Source of the DNA: an uncultured Methanobrevibacter sp.
GTDB lineage: Archaea; Methanobacteriota; Methanobacteria; Methanobacteriales; Methanobacteriaceae
Direction of reading: 5' to 3'
Assembly (NCBI RefSeq): GCF_946184425.1
Contig: NZ_CAMHFP010000012.1
Coordinates: 1-57,867 of the forward strand
Length of the DNA stretch: 57,867 nt
The notes beneath the pieces were generated by a model. That model was not told the DNA's origin and ran no database searches. It saw only the letters and a list, made by a program, of their open reading frames with translations. Positions 50,962 through 57,829 of the stretch are shown here, piece after piece. Both the position numbers and the translations under genes were made by a program. Position 1 is the stretch's first letter, and each line of letters starts with the position of its first letter.

Positions 50962-51089
50962 TCTTGAAATTTTCCTCCTTTTTTTTATTTTTTTAAATTA
51001 TATCAATTAAATTTTAAAACAGATTTTATCTTTAAAAAAGATAATTAACTAAAAAAAAGACTCTTTTTAATATAAAATATAAAAGTAAC

Positions 51090-51113
51090 AATAGCTCAAT
51101 AAAATAAGCTATT
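51090..51113 (-). terminator. Possible terminator after the STAS gene
   Basis: AATAGCT (51090-51096) and AGCTATT (51107-51113) form a 7-bp stem; on the minus strand a T-rich stretch follows. It lies just past the STAS stop and downstream of top6A, so it may serve either strand. Confidence 0.45.
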
Positions 51114-51126
51114 TAATTAAAAAAAA

Positions 51127-51426
51127 TTATTTGATTGTCAAAATTTTATCAAAACCAGACATTGAAAATATTTCTTTAATAGTATCATTTGCATTAACTA
51201 TAACAAATGGAATATCATCAGGTTTTAATTTTTTCTGAACTAAAACCAATACTCTTAAACCAGCACTGGAAATATATTCTAAATTGCTTAAATCAAGAGT
51301 TAATGAGTCAAATTTACCCATTTCATCCATTATTTCATTTTCAAAATCAGGAGCAGTAACGGTATCAATACGATTTCCAACTTCAATTGTTAAATCTTTA
51401 TCATTATAATTTTTTATAATATCCAT
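51127..51426 (-). CDS. STAS-domain protein (anti-sigma-factor-antagonist-like)
   Basis: 99 residues from ATG 51426 (SD GGAGATATC; an upstream ATG adds 5 residues). A single STAS fold: DLTIEVGNRIDTVTAPDFEN, then LTLDLSNLEYISSAGLRVLV, with Ser54 in YISSAG at the position phosphorylated in SpoIIAA/RsbV. In bacteria such proteins are phosphorylated by RsbW/SpoIIAB kinases and dephosphorylated by SpoIIE/RsbU phosphatases; two such phosphatases are 2.6 kb downstream (54-57.8 kb) on the same strand. No kinase (HATPase) gene is in the window. The role in an archaeon is inferred only. Confidence 0.88.
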   Translation of the reverse strand: MDIIKNYNDKDLTIEVGNRIDTVTAPDFENEIMDEMGKFDSLTLDLSNLEYISSAGLRVLVLVQKKLKPDDIPFVIVNANDTIKEIFSMSGFDKILTIK

Positions 51427-51539
51427 GATATCTCCTACCATAATCTAAATAATTATAAGATTTTTAAATAATTTAAAGTTTTTGATAAATTAATTCATAA
51501 CTTAATCATAAACTAAAGGTTTATATATAGTGATACATA

Positions 51540-51557
51540 TATACCCATATAGGTATA
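51540..51557. promoter_or_regulatory. CsoR-type operator at the csoR promoter
   Basis: TATACC (51540-51545)-CATATA-GGTATA (51552-51557): a perfect 6-6-6 inverted repeat, located just after a TATA box (TTTATATATA, 51520-51529), near the expected transcript start. Its arms are identical to those before copA. Consistent with CsoR autoregulation. Confidence 0.65.
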
Positions 51558-51569
51558 GGTTGTGTTATT

Positions 51570-51842
51570 TTGAAACAATGTATGGATAGTGAGAATTTAC
51601 ATAGAAGACTGAAAAAAATCATAGGCCAGATAAATGCTATAGACCGTATGATTGATGAAGATATTCCATGTGAACAAATATTAATGCAAGTAAATGCATC
51701 GAAATCAGCATTACACAAAGTTGGACACATTATTGTCGAAGGACATTTGGAACATTGCGTTAAAGAAGCTATAGAAAATGGAGATTCAGACGATGCACTA
51801 GGAGATATTTCTTCAATATTGGAATACTACTCCAGACTTTAA
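51570..51842 (+). CDS. csoR: CsoR-family metal-sensing repressor
   Basis: 90 residues, all-helical DUF156 fold: LHRRLKKIIGQINAIDRMID (11-30). Metal ligands Cys34, His59 and Cys63 keep the exact spacing of M. tuberculosis CsoR (Cys36, His61, Cys65), a Cu(I) site. Start taken at TTG 51570 (AGGT upstream); ATG 51582 is possible. It is followed within 50 bp by a P-type ATPase gene and a copper chaperone-like gene. Two operators with the same arms flank the cassette, so it probably represses itself and copA. Nickel- or sulfur-responsive relatives exist; copper is favoured, not proven. Confidence 0.9.
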   Translation: MKQCMDSENLHRRLKKIIGQINAIDRMIDEDIPCEQILMQVNASKSALHKVGHIIVEGHLEHCVKEAIENGDSDDALGDISSILEYYSRL

Positions 51843-51862
51843 TTTTTTTTAAAATAACTTTA

Positions 51863-51880
51863 TATACCTATGGGGGTATA
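51863..51880. promoter_or_regulatory. CsoR-type operator at the copA promoter
   Basis: TATACC (51863-51868)-TATGGG-GGTATA (51875-51880), same arms and spacing as the site before csoR. It overlaps a TATA-like CTTTATATA (51859-51866), so binding would block transcription of the ATPase gene 24-40 bp downstream. Confidence 0.65.
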
Positions 51881-51904
51881 CCTATACTATTGGGGCTGTT
51901 TAAT

Positions 51905-53767
51905 ATGAATTTGAAATTTGACAAAAAACAAAAGATAGATATTACATTGATTGTGATTTCCACAATGAGCATTATCGCAAGTTTTACATTATCTATTAAC
52001 TATCTCTCTTGGGTTGCTATAATACTTTGTGGAATACCCATATTTAAAGAATGTATAGATGGATTAATTACCGAATTTGACATAACTGCAGATTTGCTTG
52101 TCTCAATAGCCATTATTGCATCAGTAATTATTGGAGAGATATTTGCTGCAGGAGAAATTGCAACAATTATGGCAATCGGAGGATTTTTAGAAGAATATAC
52201 CGTATCAAAAACACAAGGCAAAATAGAAGAACTCGTAAACATCACTCCTCAAAAAGCAACAAGAATTAAAAATGGCATTGAAGAAAAAATATCATTAGCT
52301 GAAATAAAAATTGGAGATATCCTAAAAGTATTACCTGGCGAAAGCATTCCAACTGATGGAATAATCACAAATGGAGAAACATCCATAAATCAATCAACAT
52401 TAACAGGAGAATCACTACCTGTCGATAAAGTTGCAAAGGATAACGTTTTTAGCGGCACCATAAATCTTTATGGATCATTTACCATGAAAGCAACAAAGAC
52501 TGCAGAAAACAGTTCTCTTCAAAAATTAATTAAACTTGTAGAATCATCAAAACCAGAAAATGCAAAAATCGTGAGAACCGCTGACAAATGGGCCAAATGG
52601 ATTGTACTGATCGCATTTTTCTCATCAATCTTAACTTATATATTCACAGGAGATATAATAAGGTCCGTTACAATTCTAGTAGTATTTTGTCCATGTGCAT
52701 TAGTTCTTGCTACACCTACAGCTATCATGGCAAGCATTGGAAATCTGACAAAACATGGAATTTTAGTTAAAGACGGAGAATCCATTGAAGAATTGGCACA
52801 GGTTAATGAATTGATATTTGACAAAACAGGGACTTTAACTTATGGAACACCAAAAGTGACCCGCACCCAATCAAAAAATGTAGATGAAATGATGCTTTTA
52901 CTTGCATCGCTCGAATCAAAATCAGAGCACCCTTTAGCTAAATCAATAGTTAATTACTATGGTAAAAAAGATTTAAAAGATGTAGATAACTTTGAAATGA
53001 TAATTGGAAAAGGAGTAAAAGGAAAAATTGATGGCAATTTGGTACTTGCCGGGAACAGAAGACTTTTTGACATCGAAAATATTGAAATTTCACAAAAGAC
53101 TCATTTACACAGCAATGAAACTGAAATAATTGTAGCTAAAAACAATGAAATTTTAGGAAATGTAATACTATCAGATATCCTAAGGCACAATTCAAAGAAC
53201 ACCATCAGACAATTAAAAAATATGGGAATCCAAACAACATTGCTTACTGGAGATAATGAAAAAACAGGATCATACATAGCTAAGGAAGTTGGAGTTTCAA
53301 ATGCAGAATTTGAATGCATGCCCGAAAATAAAAGTGCATATATATCAAAAAGACAGTTAAAAAATAATAAGGTTGCCATGATAGGTGATGGAATTAACGA
53401 TGCTCCATCACTTAAAAAAGCAAATGTAGGAATTTCAATGGGAAAAATTGGAAGTGATATATCTGTAGATGCTTCAAATATTACATTAATTAATGACAAC
53501 ATTGAGGAACTACCACATTTAATTGCAATATCACAAAAAACATTGAAAACAATTAAACTAAACATTTCTTTTTCATTAGGTTTAAACTTTTTAGCAATGG
53601 TCTTAGCAATTATAGGAATACTAAATCCAATAGTCGGAGCATTAATCCACAATATTGGGTCAGTCATAGTAATAATATACTCAGCAACATTAGTTAACTA
53701 CACACATACAAACAATGAATGCCAAAAATTAGGTATGACTAAAAGTTTAAATAATCCAATTACATAA
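51905..53767 (+). CDS. copA: P1B-type heavy-metal transport ATPase (probably copper efflux)
   Basis: Membrane pump with about eight helices. CPC (about 262-264 from ATG 51905) is the metal-binding helix; the phosphorylation site DKTGT (306-310), TGES, SEHPLA (HP motif) and GDGINDAP are complete. It has no N-terminal metal-binding domain; the separate copZ gene encodes one. The C-terminal membrane pair reads NPIVGALIHNIGSVIVII, not the MSS or NYxxM signs typical of P1B-1 Cu pumps, so metal identity is uncertain. Length about 620 is usual. The ATG at 51905 is preferred over TTG at 51890. Transcribed with csoR and copZ in one direction. Confidence 0.88.
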   Translation: MNLKFDKKQKIDITLIVISTMSIIASFTLSINYLSWVAIILCGIPIFKECIDGLITEFDITADLLVSIAIIASVIIGEIFAAGEIATIMAIGGFLEEYTVSKTQGKIEELVNITPQKATRIKNGIEEKISLAEIKIGDILKVLPGESIPTDGIITNGETSINQSTLTGESLPVDKVAKDNVFSGTINLYGSFTMKATKTAENSSLQKLIKLVESSKPENAKIVRTADKWAKWIVLIAFFSSILTYIFTGDIIRSVTILVVFCPCALVLATPTAIMASIGNLTKHGILVKDGESIEELAQVNELIFDKTGTLTYGTPKVTRTQSKNVDEMMLLLASLESKSEHPLAKSIVNYYGKKDLKDVDNFEMIIGKGVKGKIDGNLVLAGNRRLFDIENIEISQKTHLHSNETEIIVAKNNEILGNVILSDILRHNSKNTIRQLKNMGIQTTLLTGDNEKTGSYIAKEVGVSNAEFECMPENKSAYISKRQLKNNKVAMIGDGINDAPSLKKANVGISMGKIGSDISVDASNITLINDNIEELPHLIAISQKTLKTIKLNISFSLGLNFLAMVLAIIGILNPIVGALIHNIGSVIVIIYSATLVNYTHTNNECQKLGMTKSLNNPIT

Positions 53768-53800
53768 TACTACATATCAATAAAAAAAGAGTGATTTAAA

Positions 53801-54004
53801 ATGGCTGAAAAAGAAATTAAAGTTGTAGGAATGCACTGCCCATCATGTGTAAATGCTGTTGAACTTTGTTTAAAAGATGTTGATGGAATTGATGATGCTA
53901 AAGCAGATTTAGATTCTGGAATAACAAAAATTACAATGTCTGAAGATGTTAGTGATGCAGACATTAATGAAGCTGTTGAAGAAGCAGGTTTCAAAGTAGA
54001 ATAA
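53801..54004 (+). CDS. copZ: CopZ-like metal chaperone (HMA domain)
   Basis: 67 residues, a single heavy-metal-associated domain. VVGMHCPSCVNAVELCL (9-25) holds the MxCxxC metal site (GMHCPSC), followed by KDVDGIDDAKADLDSGITKI and the helix VEEAGFKVE. It would shuttle Cu(I) to the ATPase encoded 33 bp upstream. GTGATT lies before ATG (SD). It ends 22 bp before the convergent SpoIIE phosphatase gene. Confidence 0.93.
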   Translation: MAEKEIKVVGMHCPSCVNAVELCLKDVDGIDDAKADLDSGITKITMSEDVSDADINEAVEEAGFKVE

Positions 54005-54025
54005 TTCTACTTACTTTTCTTTTTT

Positions 54026-55903
54026 TTATTTGAATTTAACTATCAACATTGTCATATCATCAAATTGCTCCTGATAATCACAATATCTATCAATATCCTC
54101 CTTAACAGATGATATTATTACATCGAGATTATCTGAAGAATGTTTATTCAATATTTCCTTTAAACGGTCTTCACCATAAAAACCGTTATACTCAGTATTG
54201 GCTTCAGTTATACCATCAGTATATAAGAATAATTCATCATCAGGACTTAATTTTATTGAATGAACTTTATAATCCACATCTTCCATAATGCCCAAAACCA
54301 AACCAGAATCTATATTTAAATATTCAAAAGAATTGTTTTGTTTTAATAAAGGAGGATTATGACCAGCATTAACCAGATGTAATTTACCTGTTTTTAAATT
54401 TAGTTTTCCCAACAAAGAAGTTACAAAATGATTTTCATCATTCCTTTCATAAATCAAATTGTTTACTTCAGAAAAACACTCAGACAAATCCTCGTAGTGT
54501 TTAGCATAATCTTGAATTAAGGTCATTGCTTCAACCATTACCAACGCCGCAGAAACTCCCTTGCCACTAACATCCCCAATTACGAATCCGATATTTTCAT
54601 CATCAATTTGGAAATAATCATAGAAATCTCCACCTACCTCATGTGCAGCTTCCACAAAACCCCAAATTTCAAAATTCTTATTTTCACAGAATTTATCATA
54701 ATCAGTCGGAATCATCGAAGATTGGATAGAATCTGCCAAATACAATTCAGTTTCATATCTTTCATTTTCAGCTGTGACTTCAAGCAGTTTCTCACGATAT
54801 TTAGCAACATCCCCTTCCATCTTAATCAGTGAATCTGCCAAAAATTTAATCTCATTGTCTAAAGATATTGATTCCAGATTTTCTTTTATCTTTAAATTCT
54901 CATCACCCTTACCCGTATCAAAATTAAGTGAATTGGATATCTTATTTAAAGGGTTGGTGACATTCTTTTCCAGGAAATATAAGTAAAACAAGAAAGGAAC
55001 AACAAATAATATTAAAAATGTAAAAATATCATTTGAAAATTTAAAAATCTGATAGTACATTCCACCATTTTTAATTAATTCTAAAATCATTTGATAGTTA
55101 TTGAAAATATATGAACCCGCCATCATTACTTCTATCATAAAAAAAATCAAGAACACGGAAAATGTCATTTTTTGGATTAAATTAATATTGATAACCCGTT
55201 TAAGTTTGAACACAGACGATTCATATGGTCTAAACAAATAGATGATTGCCACTGGAATTATAAACAACATCAGATTCATATCATCAAATGTAATGAAAAC
55301 TATTATTCCAGAAACAGTCAAAAAAATCCACATGATAGAAAATACCTTTTCGGGTAAAATTGATCTGAACTGTTTTTGAGGAGTGTAAACTGGAATTTTA
55401 AAGTAGTTGATTATATATATTACACCCATCATCAACAACATTGAGATTGGAAAAGATGTTTCGAAATCAAAGAACAGCCCATATTCAATAGGTAAAAATC
55501 CAGTAATTCTAATTGCTGCATAAAAACAAGCATACACTACGAATATTTTAATAAAACTAGCATAATTACCTAAATTTGGAATATCAAAGCCAAATCTGGA
55601 TAAACAGGAATACCATAATTTCCAAACTAATGTCCCTGCAATAAACAATATAACAGAATCAAACAGATAATAATACCAATGAACACTATCAAAAATAATA
55701 CCTATGCAAATTTGAGATATAGCACAACCCAATGCTGCAAATGGCCCCCATATAACACATAAAATTGGAATTACAAAAATATCTGCAGCAAATTCAAATC
55801 CTCCCAAGACAATGAATGCAAACACCATTGTAATAAATTCCATCAATATGGAAAACAATAAAATAAATTTTTTAGAAAGGAGTAAATTGCGAACATTAAC
55901 CAT
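54026..55903 (-). CDS. Membrane-anchored SpoIIE/RsbU-type serine phosphatase (PP2C-like)
   Basis: 625 residues. The N-terminal half has about nine hydrophobic helices, including FVIPILCVIWGPFAALGCAI, an unknown sensor membrane domain. After a HAMP-like stretch (EKNVTNPLNKISNSLN, near 310-330) comes a coiled helix and a C-terminal SpoIIE phosphatase: SSMIPTDYD, HEVGGDFYDYFQIDDENIG, IGDVSGKGVSAALVM, VNAGHNPPLL and LFLYTDGITEA, carrying the metal-binding Asp residues. It would dephosphorylate a STAS protein such as that at 51.1-51.4 kb. It directly follows its paralogue (55904-57829; 0-bp gap) on the same strand. Confidence 0.88.
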   Translation of the reverse strand: MVNVRNLLLSKKFILLFSILMEFITMVFAFIVLGGFEFAADIFVIPILCVIWGPFAALGCAISQICIGIIFDSVHWYYYLFDSVILFIAGTLVWKLWYSCLSRFGFDIPNLGNYASFIKIFVVYACFYAAIRITGFLPIEYGLFFDFETSFPISMLLMMGVIYIINYFKIPVYTPQKQFRSILPEKVFSIMWIFLTVSGIIVFITFDDMNLMLFIIPVAIIYLFRPYESSVFKLKRVININLIQKMTFSVFLIFFMIEVMMAGSYIFNNYQMILELIKNGGMYYQIFKFSNDIFTFLILFVVPFLFYLYFLEKNVTNPLNKISNSLNFDTGKGDENLKIKENLESISLDNEIKFLADSLIKMEGDVAKYREKLLEVTAENERYETELYLADSIQSSMIPTDYDKFCENKNFEIWGFVEAAHEVGGDFYDYFQIDDENIGFVIGDVSGKGVSAALVMVEAMTLIQDYAKHYEDLSECFSEVNNLIYERNDENHFVTSLLGKLNLKTGKLHLVNAGHNPPLLKQNNSFEYLNIDSGLVLGIMEDVDYKVHSIKLSPDDELFLYTDGITEANTEYNGFYGEDRLKEILNKHSSDNLDVIISSVKEDIDRYCDYQEQFDDMTMLIVKFK

Positions 55904-57829
55904 CTAATCACCATTGAATTTAATTATAAGCATTGTCAAATCATCAAATTGTTCTTTAGTACCACAATACCTAAATATATCTTCATTAATTTCATATATT
56001 ATCTGACTTAATTTTTGATCTTTATTTTTATTAATAACATCTTTTAATCTATCTTCACCATAAAAACCATGATAATCATTATTGGCTTCAGTTAACCCAT
56101 CAGTATATAAAAATACCATATCTCCAGATTTTAAATTGAGTTTATGCTCAGTATACAGCATGTCATCCATTACCCCCAAAACCAAATCTGATGAAGTATT
56201 CAAATATTCAAAATCACCATTATCCCGCCTCAGCAAAGGAGGATTATGACCCGCATTTACAAAAGACAATTCGCCAGTTCTAATATTTAATTTGCCAATC
56301 CATGATGTTACAAATAAATTATCACTATTTCTCCCACATGACAAATTATTAACATTTTCGTATACCTCCGAGAGATTATCATGGAACTTGGAATGATTTT
56401 TAATTAAATGCATTGTTTTAACCATGAATAAAGCTGCAGGAATACCTTTACCACTGACATCCCCTATTACAAATACAATATTATCATCATCTATTGTGAA
56501 ATAATCATAAAAATCACCACCCACTTCTCTTGCAGGACTCATATAGGCATTAATCTCAAAAGGCATACCTGATGAGAATACTTCAAAATCACTAGACAGC
56601 ATGTTTATTTGAATGTTATGTGCAATATTGAATTCAGTTTCATATCTCTCATTTTCAATTGTAGATTTTTTAAGGTCATCCAAATTAGTTCTTATAAGTT
56701 TACTTAATGCATTGAATGAGTTAAACAGCACGGAAATATCATCCTCATTTTGCATGAAATTTTTCAGTCTGAATGAGACTTTTTTAGGAGTTTCCAATTT
56801 TCCTTCACTAATATAGTTATTTGTAGCATCAATCAAGACGTTAATTGGATTTGTTAAAATTTTTTCAACAAAATAAACATGAATCAAAGTAAGCAAAATC
56901 GAAATGCATATCAACACGCCCAGAGTAATCATGAAAATATAACCTGCATTCAATCCATTTAGAAAAGATACCCCCATTAATCTATTGAACATATTGTCAA
57001 AAATTCCAAAGGAAAATACCATCATGATAATTAAAAAGATAAAAATGATTTTTTCTATAATGGAATAATATTTAGAATATTGAATAGGACCAACATCAAA
57101 AGTATTTAAATTAAAAATAACTATAGAAGTGAAAGACAATATAAAGAAAATATAACTCCATACAGATTCTTTTAAAAATTCCTGAGTCATTCCAATAAAT
57201 ACCAATATCAGAATTACTGGAATGGCAAAATATTTATACGGAAAATTCAATCTGGTCACAAATTTTTTAGGTATTGTCAAAGGAATTTTAAGAATATTGA
57301 AAATACTAATTAAAATCAAAGAGTAAATCAGTGAAAAGTCAAAAAGATTGAATGCATATGAAATATGATTAGTGAAACTTGTTAAAGAATATAACTCACC
57401 CATAATAGACGGAAATACTAAACATGAAGTTAAAAACAACATCAAATACATTAAAGAACTTAAAAACATGACCAACAATAATTTCAAAATATTAAACAGG
57501 GAATCAAACTTAGGCGTGAACGAGTCCTTAGGAGGCAATAGATACCATAATTTATAAGAGAACACAGATATCAAAAATAGAATCAATGAATCCAAAAAGT
57601 TTGCAATGATATTTCCTCCCCAATACATCTCACTTATAAAAGTAGCGCAAGCAAAACCCAACCCTCCGACAGGGCCAAACATCAATCCAAAAACAGGAGC
57701 AAGTCCCATATCGGGAATAAAAAATCTTCCACCAATATTTATATGATTAAATACATAAAACATTGCCAATTCAATTATAAATGTGAAAATAAAAATGAAC
57801 TTATAGTTTTTAAAGATTTTATTAAACAT
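55904..57829 (-). CDS. Membrane-anchored SpoIIE/RsbU-type serine phosphatase, paralogue
   Basis: Second tandem phosphatase, about 641 residues from ATG 57829 (SD GGGGA; an upstream in-frame start would add 11 residues). The N-terminal membrane domain (NIGGRFFIPDMGLAPVFGLM, FGPVGGLGFACATFIS) differs from that of its neighbour, so the sensed signal is probably different. A HAMP-like part (VEKILTNPINVLIDATNNYI) leads to the phosphatase, with REVGGDFYDYFTIDDDNIV, IGDVSGKGIPAALFM, VNAGHNPPLL and VFLYTDGLTEAN. The gene starts near the right edge of the window, and any upstream operon partner (for example a kinase) is outside. Confidence 0.88.
   Translation of the reverse strand: MFNKIFKNYKFIFIFTFIIELAMFYVFNHINIGGRFFIPDMGLAPVFGLMFGPVGGLGFACATFISEMYWGGNIIANFLDSLILFLISVFSYKLWYLLPPKDSFTPKFDSLFNILKLLLVMFLSSLMYLMLFLTSCLVFPSIMGELYSLTSFTNHISYAFNLFDFSLIYSLILISIFNILKIPLTIPKKFVTRLNFPYKYFAIPVILILVFIGMTQEFLKESVWSYIFFILSFTSIVIFNLNTFDVGPIQYSKYYSIIEKIIFIFLIIMMVFSFGIFDNMFNRLMGVSFLNGLNAGYIFMITLGVLICISILLTLIHVYFVEKILTNPINVLIDATNNYISEGKLETPKKVSFRLKNFMQNEDDISVLFNSFNALSKLIRTNLDDLKKSTIENERYETEFNIAHNIQINMLSSDFEVFSSGMPFEINAYMSPAREVGGDFYDYFTIDDDNIVFVIGDVSGKGIPAALFMVKTMHLIKNHSKFHDNLSEVYENVNNLSCGRNSDNLFVTSWIGKLNIRTGELSFVNAGHNPPLLRRDNGDFEYLNTSSDLVLGVMDDMLYTEHKLNLKSGDMVFLYTDGLTEANNDYHGFYGEDRLKDVINKNKDQKLSQIIYEINEDIFRYCGTKEQFDDLTMLIIKFNGD

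What the first reader, a model, noticed from the sequence alone, without database searches (positions are those of the whole stretch)
51127..57829. Bacterial-style partner-switching module in a methanogen: STAS protein plus two membrane SpoIIE phosphatases
STAS proteins with the ISSAG phosphoserine region and SpoIIE/RsbU PP2C-type phosphatases are the two arms of a switch known from bacteria, where the output is a sigma factor. Archaea lack bacterial sigma factors, so the target must be something else, such as a kinase-bound regulator, membrane enzyme or transport protein. The phosphatases carry large membrane sensor domains. A metal-efflux cassette is inserted between the STAS and the phosphatases.
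Basis: partly seen in the sequence, partly recalled or inferred. Interest (0 to 1): 0.72.

Follow-up and report, generated by a model that had tools for sequence, protein, structure and literature searches.

The report
Methanogen phospho-switch linked to peptide synthesis
A bacterial-type on/off phosphorylation switch is encoded in this methanogen, and relatives carry it beside genes that make and export small peptides, with an exporter bearing a crippled copy of the switch's kinase domain that makes it a candidate direct target.

Summary
The window carries a 99-aa STAS protein (51127-51426, -) with the ISSAG site and two abutting membrane SpoIIE phosphatases (54026-55903, 55904-57829, -), with a CsoR-like repressor and a heavy-metal P-type ATPase between. 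The missing arm, an RsbW/SpoIIAB-like kinase, lies on another contig, in an operon with a third phosphatase and a phosphopantetheinyl transferase. No sigma-70 region 2 was found. In 67 same-genus genomes 51 have STAS, kinase and phosphatase, 15 none, 1 a phosphatase fragment; 47 of the 51 and 0 of the other 16 have NRPS genes. The tie holds in 83 genomes outside the genus. In four loci of other genera the order is NRPS - MATE exporter - STAS - kinase - phosphatase on one strand. The exporter ends in a kinase-like domain: 34 of 34 keep N-box and G1, 0 of 34 the G2 motif, so it looks like a pseudokinase. I propose that the switch controls peptide production and export, partly by STAS docking on the exporter; contact and phosphorylation are untested. 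Linkage to NRPS genes was published for M. ruminantium in 2010; the exporter's domain was not found in print.

The parts
51127..51426 (-). STAS-1, anti-sigma-antagonist-like protein, 99 aa, ISSAG with Ser53/Ser54 (longer start at 51441 possible)
54026..55903 (-). PP2C_A, membrane SpoIIE-type phosphatase, 625 aa, second gene of the pair
55904..57829 (-). PP2C_B, membrane SpoIIE-type phosphatase, 641 aa, first gene of the pair; stop abuts the ATG of PP2C_A
51570..51842 (+). CsoR-family metal-sensing repressor; neighbour, not part of the switch
51890..53767 (+). heavy-metal P-type ATPase; neighbour, not part of the switch
50962..51126 (.). 165-base gap between topoisomerase VI subunit A and STAS-1, the place where relative L022 carries a MATE gene; in L014 a MATE-NRPS pair lies on that side of the STAS gene

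Best explanation
The window holds two of the three arms of a SpoIIAA/SpoIIAB/SpoIIE-type partner switch whose third arm, the kinase, is encoded elsewhere in the genome. Shown: the genes, their motifs, their co-occurrence and their linkage to NRPS and exporter genes in relatives. Inferred from the families: the kinase phosphorylates the serine of STAS; the membrane phosphatases, when their sensor part is triggered, remove the phosphate; STAS then changes partner. Inferred here: with no sigma factor found to release, the switch acts on production and export of nonribosomal peptides. The likeliest direct contact is between STAS and the C-terminal kinase-like domain of the MATE exporter encoded next to the NRPS, which lacks the G2 motif and so should bind but not phosphorylate. 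STAS-1 and the two phosphatases of the window would feed this circuit in trans, after loss of, or without, a MATE-NRPS cassette at this site.
For: Own genome: 3 phosphatases, 1 free-standing kinase, 2 free-standing STAS; the kinase gene overlaps phosphatase 3, which overlaps a phosphopantetheinyl transferase; the second STAS is divergent from a 2605-aa NRPS followed by the MATE fusion. No Sigma70_r2 match, while 10 of 14 control genomes ring. Genus: 51 of 67 have STAS, kinase and phosphatase, 15 none, 1 a phosphatase fragment; NRPS in 47 of 51 against 0 of 16, Fisher p 4e-12. Outside the genus: phosphatase and NRPS together in 25, phosphatase alone 7, NRPS alone 6, neither 45, p 1e-9. 28 of 66 distinct archaeal STAS genes have an NRPS frame within 700 bases, 41 of 66 a kinase within 500. 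Order NRPS-MATE-STAS-kinase-phosphatase on one strand in L262, L263, L265, L266. Kinases: N-box, G1 and G2 in 47 of 47; MATE fusions of this type 34, 34 and 0 of 34. Site relatives: L014 has STAS beside MATE and NRPS plus the phosphatase pair, L022 STAS beside MATE plus the pair.
Against: No interaction, phosphorylation or expression was tested. Linkage would fit transcriptional control just as well. A second MATE type (559-566 aa, 7 distinct, five of them in loci with a STAS-1-like gene) has lost all three motifs in 7 of 7, and the four MATE proteins of the GH3 loci match my N-box pattern in 1 and my G1 pattern in 0 of 4, so docking there is doubtful. The phosphatase pair often stands apart: of 17 loci read for it (L248 with the A gene only), a kinase was recognised in none, an NRPS in one (L232) and a free-standing STAS in two (L232, L233). 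The fold of the tail was not modelled. The genomes are related and partly incomplete, so the p-values are too small. Four genomes keep the switch genes without NRPS found.
Confidence: 0.55

Rival explanations
1. The switch controls transcription of the NRPS clusters: the kinase, or STAS, holds an archaeal transcription regulator, and the kinase-like tail of the exporter plays no part. This is close to the published guess for M. ruminantium.
For: The 2010 genome paper proposes environment sensing and regulation of NRPS expression (PMC2812497, passage). Kinases of this family bind transcription factors in bacteria (recalled). Several clusters are divergent, with STAS and NRPS starting from one intergenic region.
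Against: Neighbours were labelled only by similarity to my reference proteins, so a regulator gene would not have been seen: this rival was not searched. Against it stands the exporter's tail with its fixed pattern (34 of 34 N-box and G1), seen also in five other genera, unlike a decaying relic.
Confidence: 0.3
2. The target is the NRPS itself or its phosphopantetheinyl transferase, whose gene overlaps the phosphatase gene in the core operon.
For: Kinase-phosphatase-PPTase operon in the own genome and STAS-kinase-phosphatase-PPTase in L016, L017, L019, L020, L021, L029, L031. G055 and G044 keep this set without NRPS found, in G044 with the phosphatase in two frames.
Against: L262, L263, L264 and L266 have no PPTase recognised in the stretch held. 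Overlap of genes suggests co-expression, not contact.
Confidence: 0.1
3. The two phosphatases and STAS-1 of this window are a separate sensory set, e.g. tied to metal stress through the neighbouring CsoR/P-type ATPase.
For: CsoR, or CsoR and ATPase, lie beside the orthologous STAS in five named relatives.
Against: L013 and L018 have the STAS-CsoR-ATPase order without the phosphatase pair in the stretch held (L015 is too short to tell); the pair elsewhere has other neighbours and follows STAS-kinase in L142.
Confidence: 0.05

Closest known systems
NRPS-linked regulators of Methanobrevibacter ruminantium M1 (mru0066-0071, mru0512-0516)
   Same: Serine phosphatases, anti-sigma antagonist, NRPS and MatE side by side, and a second cluster with PPTase, phosphatase, antagonist and kinase (PMC2812497, NRPS passage seen)
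   Different: The paper reads them as regulators of NRPS expression; the passages I saw do not mention a kinase-like domain on the exporter, a survey across genomes, or GH3 clusters
SpoIIAA/SpoIIAB/SpoIIE and RsbV/RsbW/RsbU of Bacillus subtilis
   Same: STAS with serine site, GHKL kinase, PP2C phosphatase (anatomy of the Bacillus systems recalled)
   Different: No sigma-70 region 2 found in this genome; exporter with a degenerate kinase domain in the cluster
SiaABCD of Pseudomonas aeruginosa
   Same: PP2C phosphatase, kinase and anti-sigma-antagonist-like protein with a non-sigma output; SiaC binds the output enzyme directly (abstracts and section lists of PMC7647112 and PMC8457831). The NCBIfam SiaA model matches both window phosphatases, far below its cut-off (46.8 and 46.2 of 700 bits)
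   Different: There the output is a diguanylate cyclase and the site a threonine; here NRPS/exporter genes and a serine site
SpoII-type proteins of Methanomicrobiales
   Same: Anti-anti-sigma, anti-sigma and serine phosphatase in methanogens without bona fide sigma factors; target left open (PMC2686161, passages)
   Different: Other order; no NRPS link in the passages seen
BtrU/BtrV/BtrW of Bordetella
   Same: Partner switch acting on a secretion process (review PMC8256260, passages)
   Different: Protein secretion machine, not a small-molecule exporter

Membership tests
SpoIIA/Rsb partner switch | STAS protein with phosphorylatable serine in the conserved loop | tested here: met
   ISSAG in STAS-1; ISSAGL in 58, TSSAGL in 1 and no match in 2 of 61 distinct archaeal STAS frames
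SpoIIA/Rsb partner switch | SpoIIE/RsbU PP2C phosphatase with metal-binding aspartates | tested here: met
   Pfam hits and motifs in all three own phosphatases; the role of the aspartates is recalled
SpoIIA/Rsb partner switch | GHKL serine kinase with N, G1 and G2 motifs | tested here: met
   In the genome, not in the window: 52.3 bits over the cut-off of 27.4; 47 of 47 distinct archaeal kinases of this type keep the motifs
SpoIIA/Rsb partner switch | Sigma factor as target | tested here: not met
   No Sigma70_r2 match in a 93% complete genome; other sigma regions not searched
SpoIIA/Rsb partner switch | Reversible phosphorylation and partner exchange | not testable with these tools
   needs protein work
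SiaABCD | SiaA equivalog | tested here: not met
   SiaA model far below cut-off
SiaABCD | Diguanylate cyclase output | not tested
   No search for a GGDEF protein was made
NRPS-linked switch cluster as in M. ruminantium M1 | Antagonist, phosphatase, kinase and PPTase genes linked to NRPS and MatE | tested here: met
   Met in relatives (without PPTase in most loci); in the own genome spread over contigs C5, C49 and the window
MATE exporter with SpoIIAB-like tail as an active kinase | Intact kinase motifs in the tail | tested here: not met
   0 of 34 keep G2, and 0 of the 53 distinct MATE frames of all types (45 archaeal, 8 bacterial) match it; Pfam HATPase_c_2 20.1 bits, below the cut-off of 27.4, in the own exporter

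The most novel reading that the evidence does not exclude
In Methanobacteriaceae a bacterial sigma-factor switch has been rewired so that its output is a transporter: unphosphorylated STAS docks on a pseudokinase domain of the MATE exporter and opens or closes export of a nonribosomal peptide, while fusions of true kinase domains to GH3-type enzymes and of kinase to phosphatase show the same parts being plugged onto other enzymes.
Probability: 0.3. Interest if true: 0.85.

Novelty: new variant of a known kind. Interest (0 to 1): 0.6.

Why it matters
What an anti-sigma kinase acts on in a methanogen without sigma factors was left open in print in 2009. An exporter with a degenerate kinase domain, encoded right next to STAS in several genera, turns the question into a direct binding test. 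If true, partner switches can gate transporters, and the methanogen peptides, whose products were unknown in the 2010 paper, would have a known on/off control.

Tried and rejected
Looked for the kinase beside the STAS and phosphatase genes: the genome search placed the one free-standing kinase on contig C5. Considered that the second, weak HATPase match of the genome is a second kinase: it is the tail of the MATE exporter and lacks G2. Considered that the metal cassette is a chance insert: the same neighbours recur in five named relatives. Looked for a fixed partner gene of the phosphatase pair: its neighbours vary. STAS tree (quick method): 98 columns only, 41 of 63 inner forks unresolved; STAS-1 groups with L013 and L014 (95), and a 13-row set (93) holds the other CsoR- and MATE562-adjacent STAS but also one kinase-adjacent (L135). 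Phosphatase tree (quick, SH-aLRT only): archaeal A one branch (99), A and B together (98, with L022's B not placed among the other B), C one branch (100) except L252; the bacterial rows were only those lying near STAS relatives and fall on one side at 82, so no donor is named. GH3: 8 of 8 genomes with it have the switch, but p is only 0.18. The own kinase found no relative among solved structures at E 0.01. Paper searches for the exporter domain: at least 3 of 'mate efflux', HATPase, STAS, SpoIIE gave 3 papers, none on this by title and abstract start; 'mate family' with 'histidine kinase-like atpase' and 'anti-sigma' gave 0; the library holds open-licence papers only.

The 34 MATE fusions are those nearest to the own exporter; the 7 of the second type and the 4 of the GH3 loci are counted apart. 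Kinases nearest to the GH3-fused one are not among the 47.
Full report
What is in the window. The STAS gene lies at 51127-51426 on the minus strand (99 aa; an upstream ATG at 51441 would add five residues). It matches STAS (E 9.2e-16) and the anti-sigma-antagonist model TIGR00377 above its cut-off, and keeps the ISSAG loop, serines 53 and 54. Its best matches among solved structures are labelled anti-sigma factor antagonists, TM1442 first. At 54026-55903 and 55904-57829, also minus, two membrane phosphatases with SpoIIE domains (E 1.9e-51, 6.3e-48) abut, stop codon against start codon. Between lie a CsoR-family repressor and a heavy-metal P-type ATPase on the plus strand. The window ends 38 bases beyond the ATG of the first phosphatase.

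The rest of the switch in the same genome. G000 is a draft of 83 contigs, 93% complete; by its STAS protein its nearest named relatives are uncultured Methanobrevibacter assemblies. It has three SpoIIE domains, one free-standing kinase over the HATPase_c_2 cut-off and two free-standing STAS proteins plus one longer protein with a C-terminal STAS domain. On contig C5 the kinase (130 aa) overlaps the third phosphatase, which overlaps a 4'-phosphopantetheinyl transferase. On contig C49 the second STAS is divergent from a 2605-aa NRPS, followed after 8 bases by a 576-aa MATE exporter. No Sigma70_r2 match was found; the same search rings in 10 of 14 control genomes.

Survey. In 67 genomes of the genus the SpoIIE domain is in 52, a free-standing STAS in 51 and a free-standing kinase in 51 (free-standing judged by frame length from the tables); 51 genomes have all three, 15 none, and one (G033) only a truncated phosphatase. 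NRPS condensation domains are in 47 of the 51 and in 0 of the other 16 (Fisher p 4e-12). In the 83 other genomes of the order, phosphatase and NRPS occur together in 25, phosphatase alone in 7, NRPS alone in 6, neither in 45 (p 1e-9). These p-values ignore kinship and draft gaps.

Linkage. Of 66 distinct archaeal STAS genes in the loci fetched by then, 41 have a kinase within 500 bases, 35 a phosphatase within 400 and 28 an NRPS frame within 700; many loci were short, so these are lower bounds. In 13 loci STAS and kinase lie next to NRPS followed by MATE (L019, L020, L021, L029, L123, L127, L129, L130, L136, L137, L138, L258, L259); a phosphatase follows in 11 of the 13 and a phosphopantetheinyl transferase is seen in 9. 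In four other genera of the family the order on one strand is NRPS, MATE, STAS, kinase, phosphatase (L262, L263, L265, L266); these loci were picked because phosphatase and NRPS lay near each other. L264, of a fifth genus and picked the same way, has STAS and phosphatase divergent from NRPS, no kinase recognised between them, and its MATE split over two frames.

The exporter tail. The last about 120 residues of these MATE proteins align with the kinases. Pfam finds HATPase_c_2 there at 20.1 bits, under its cut-off, and the 120 relatives listed of 707 are labelled MatE only. Of 34 distinct archaeal MATE proteins of this type 34 keep the N-box, 34 the G1 motif and 0 the G2 motif; of 47 kinases all keep all three. 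The tails of the five loci show a G1-like motif without G2, by eye in the last 60 residues printed. A second MATE type (559-566 aa) has lost all three in 7 of 7; the four MATE proteins of the GH3 loci and eight bacterial ones also lack the G2 pattern, 0 of 12, and match the G1 pattern in 0 of 12. One of the bacterial ones (L048, Lachnospiraceae) still scores 42.2 bits for HATPase_c_2, over the cut-off, in a locus with STAS, phosphatase and a STAS-APH-HATPase protein. That the tail binds STAS is inference.

This site in relatives. L014 (RUG648) carries the same phosphatase pair, CsoR, STAS-1 and then MATE and part of an NRPS; L022 (RUG13115) carries the pair, ATPase, CsoR, STAS-1, a MATE and topoisomerase VI A; L013, L015 and L018 have ATPase, CsoR, STAS and topoisomerase only, in the stretch held. 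So a MATE or MATE-NRPS cassette has come or gone at this place; which, I cannot say. In L142 (G010) the pair follows STAS and kinase, the best single tie of this pair to a kinase.

The phosphatase pair. A quick tree of 90 catalytic domains puts the A proteins on one branch (99), A and B together (98) and C apart except L252. I read the pair as an old tandem duplicate. In 17 loci read for it its neighbours vary: kinase recognised in 0, NRPS in 1, free-standing STAS in 2 (recounted).

Other outputs. Two of the four genomes with the switch but no NRPS found, G026 and G039, carry phosphatase, STAS, GH3 enzyme, RimK-like ligase, two ABC transporters, a second GH3 and the kinase in one row (Pfam run on G039 only). 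In G013, G041, G059 and G060 a MATE, a STAS and a GH3-kinase fusion of 711 aa lie beside the phosphatase pair. L032 encodes a phosphatase fused to a kinase domain. So the common factor may be small-molecule synthesis and export rather than NRPS alone. The other two genomes, G044 and G055, show STAS, kinase, phosphatase and PPTase without such genes recognised.

What is known. The M. ruminantium genome paper of 2010 (PMC2812497; the NRPS passage) describes phosphatases, antagonist, NRPS and MatE together, proposes roles in environment sensing, NRPS expression and export, and suggests bacterial origin. A 2009 paper (PMC2686161; passages) found the three proteins in Methanomicrobiales and left the target open. 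A rumen survey (PMC8241843; passages) reports many archaeal NRPS clusters. SiaABCD (PMC7647112, PMC8457831; abstracts and section lists) shows that an antagonist-like protein can drive an enzyme directly. Set against these, the module is a new variant: known switch, known neighbourhood, with a candidate target that my searches did not find in print.

Verdict. Observation confirmed; interpretation partly right and sharpened. A tie of the switch to peptide synthesis and export is well supported by linkage and co-occurrence; the exporter tail as direct target is a good but untested idea.

Noticed in passing
L131 7737-9872, L132 9331-11466, L260 15769-17904, L261 6479-8614: 711-aa fusion of a GH3-family enzyme with a C-terminal kinase domain; in L131 (the one run against Pfam) it keeps the GGLG motif; encoded beside MATE, STAS and the phosphatase pair.
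   Followed up: partly
L252 1786-12286 and L255 5798-16298: Phosphatase-STAS-GH3-RimK-ABC-ABC-GH3-kinase cluster in two genomes without NRPS condensation domains found.
   Followed up: partly
L032 7720-9930: SpoIIE phosphatase fused to a C-terminal HATPase_c_2 kinase domain (736 aa).
   Followed up: partly
L012 4163-5434: Protein with a weak methyltransferase-like match (below cut-off) and a C-terminal STAS domain (SSAG); long STAS-bearing frames also occur in genomes without the rest of the switch (G009, G030, G066).
   Followed up: no
L048 10305-15162, L054, L069: Bacterial loci with phosphatase, a STAS-HATPase protein (with APH domain in L048, the one run against Pfam) and a MATE with a related tail; no sigma factor was looked for there.
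   Followed up: no
L264 16818-18553: MATE exporter split over two frames, so that the kinase-like tail is a separate reading frame; real split or sequencing error not settled.
   Followed up: no
window 51570-53767: CsoR-like repressor plus P-type ATPase stand beside the STAS gene also in L013, L015, L018 and L022; L014 keeps CsoR without the ATPase recognised.
   Followed up: partly
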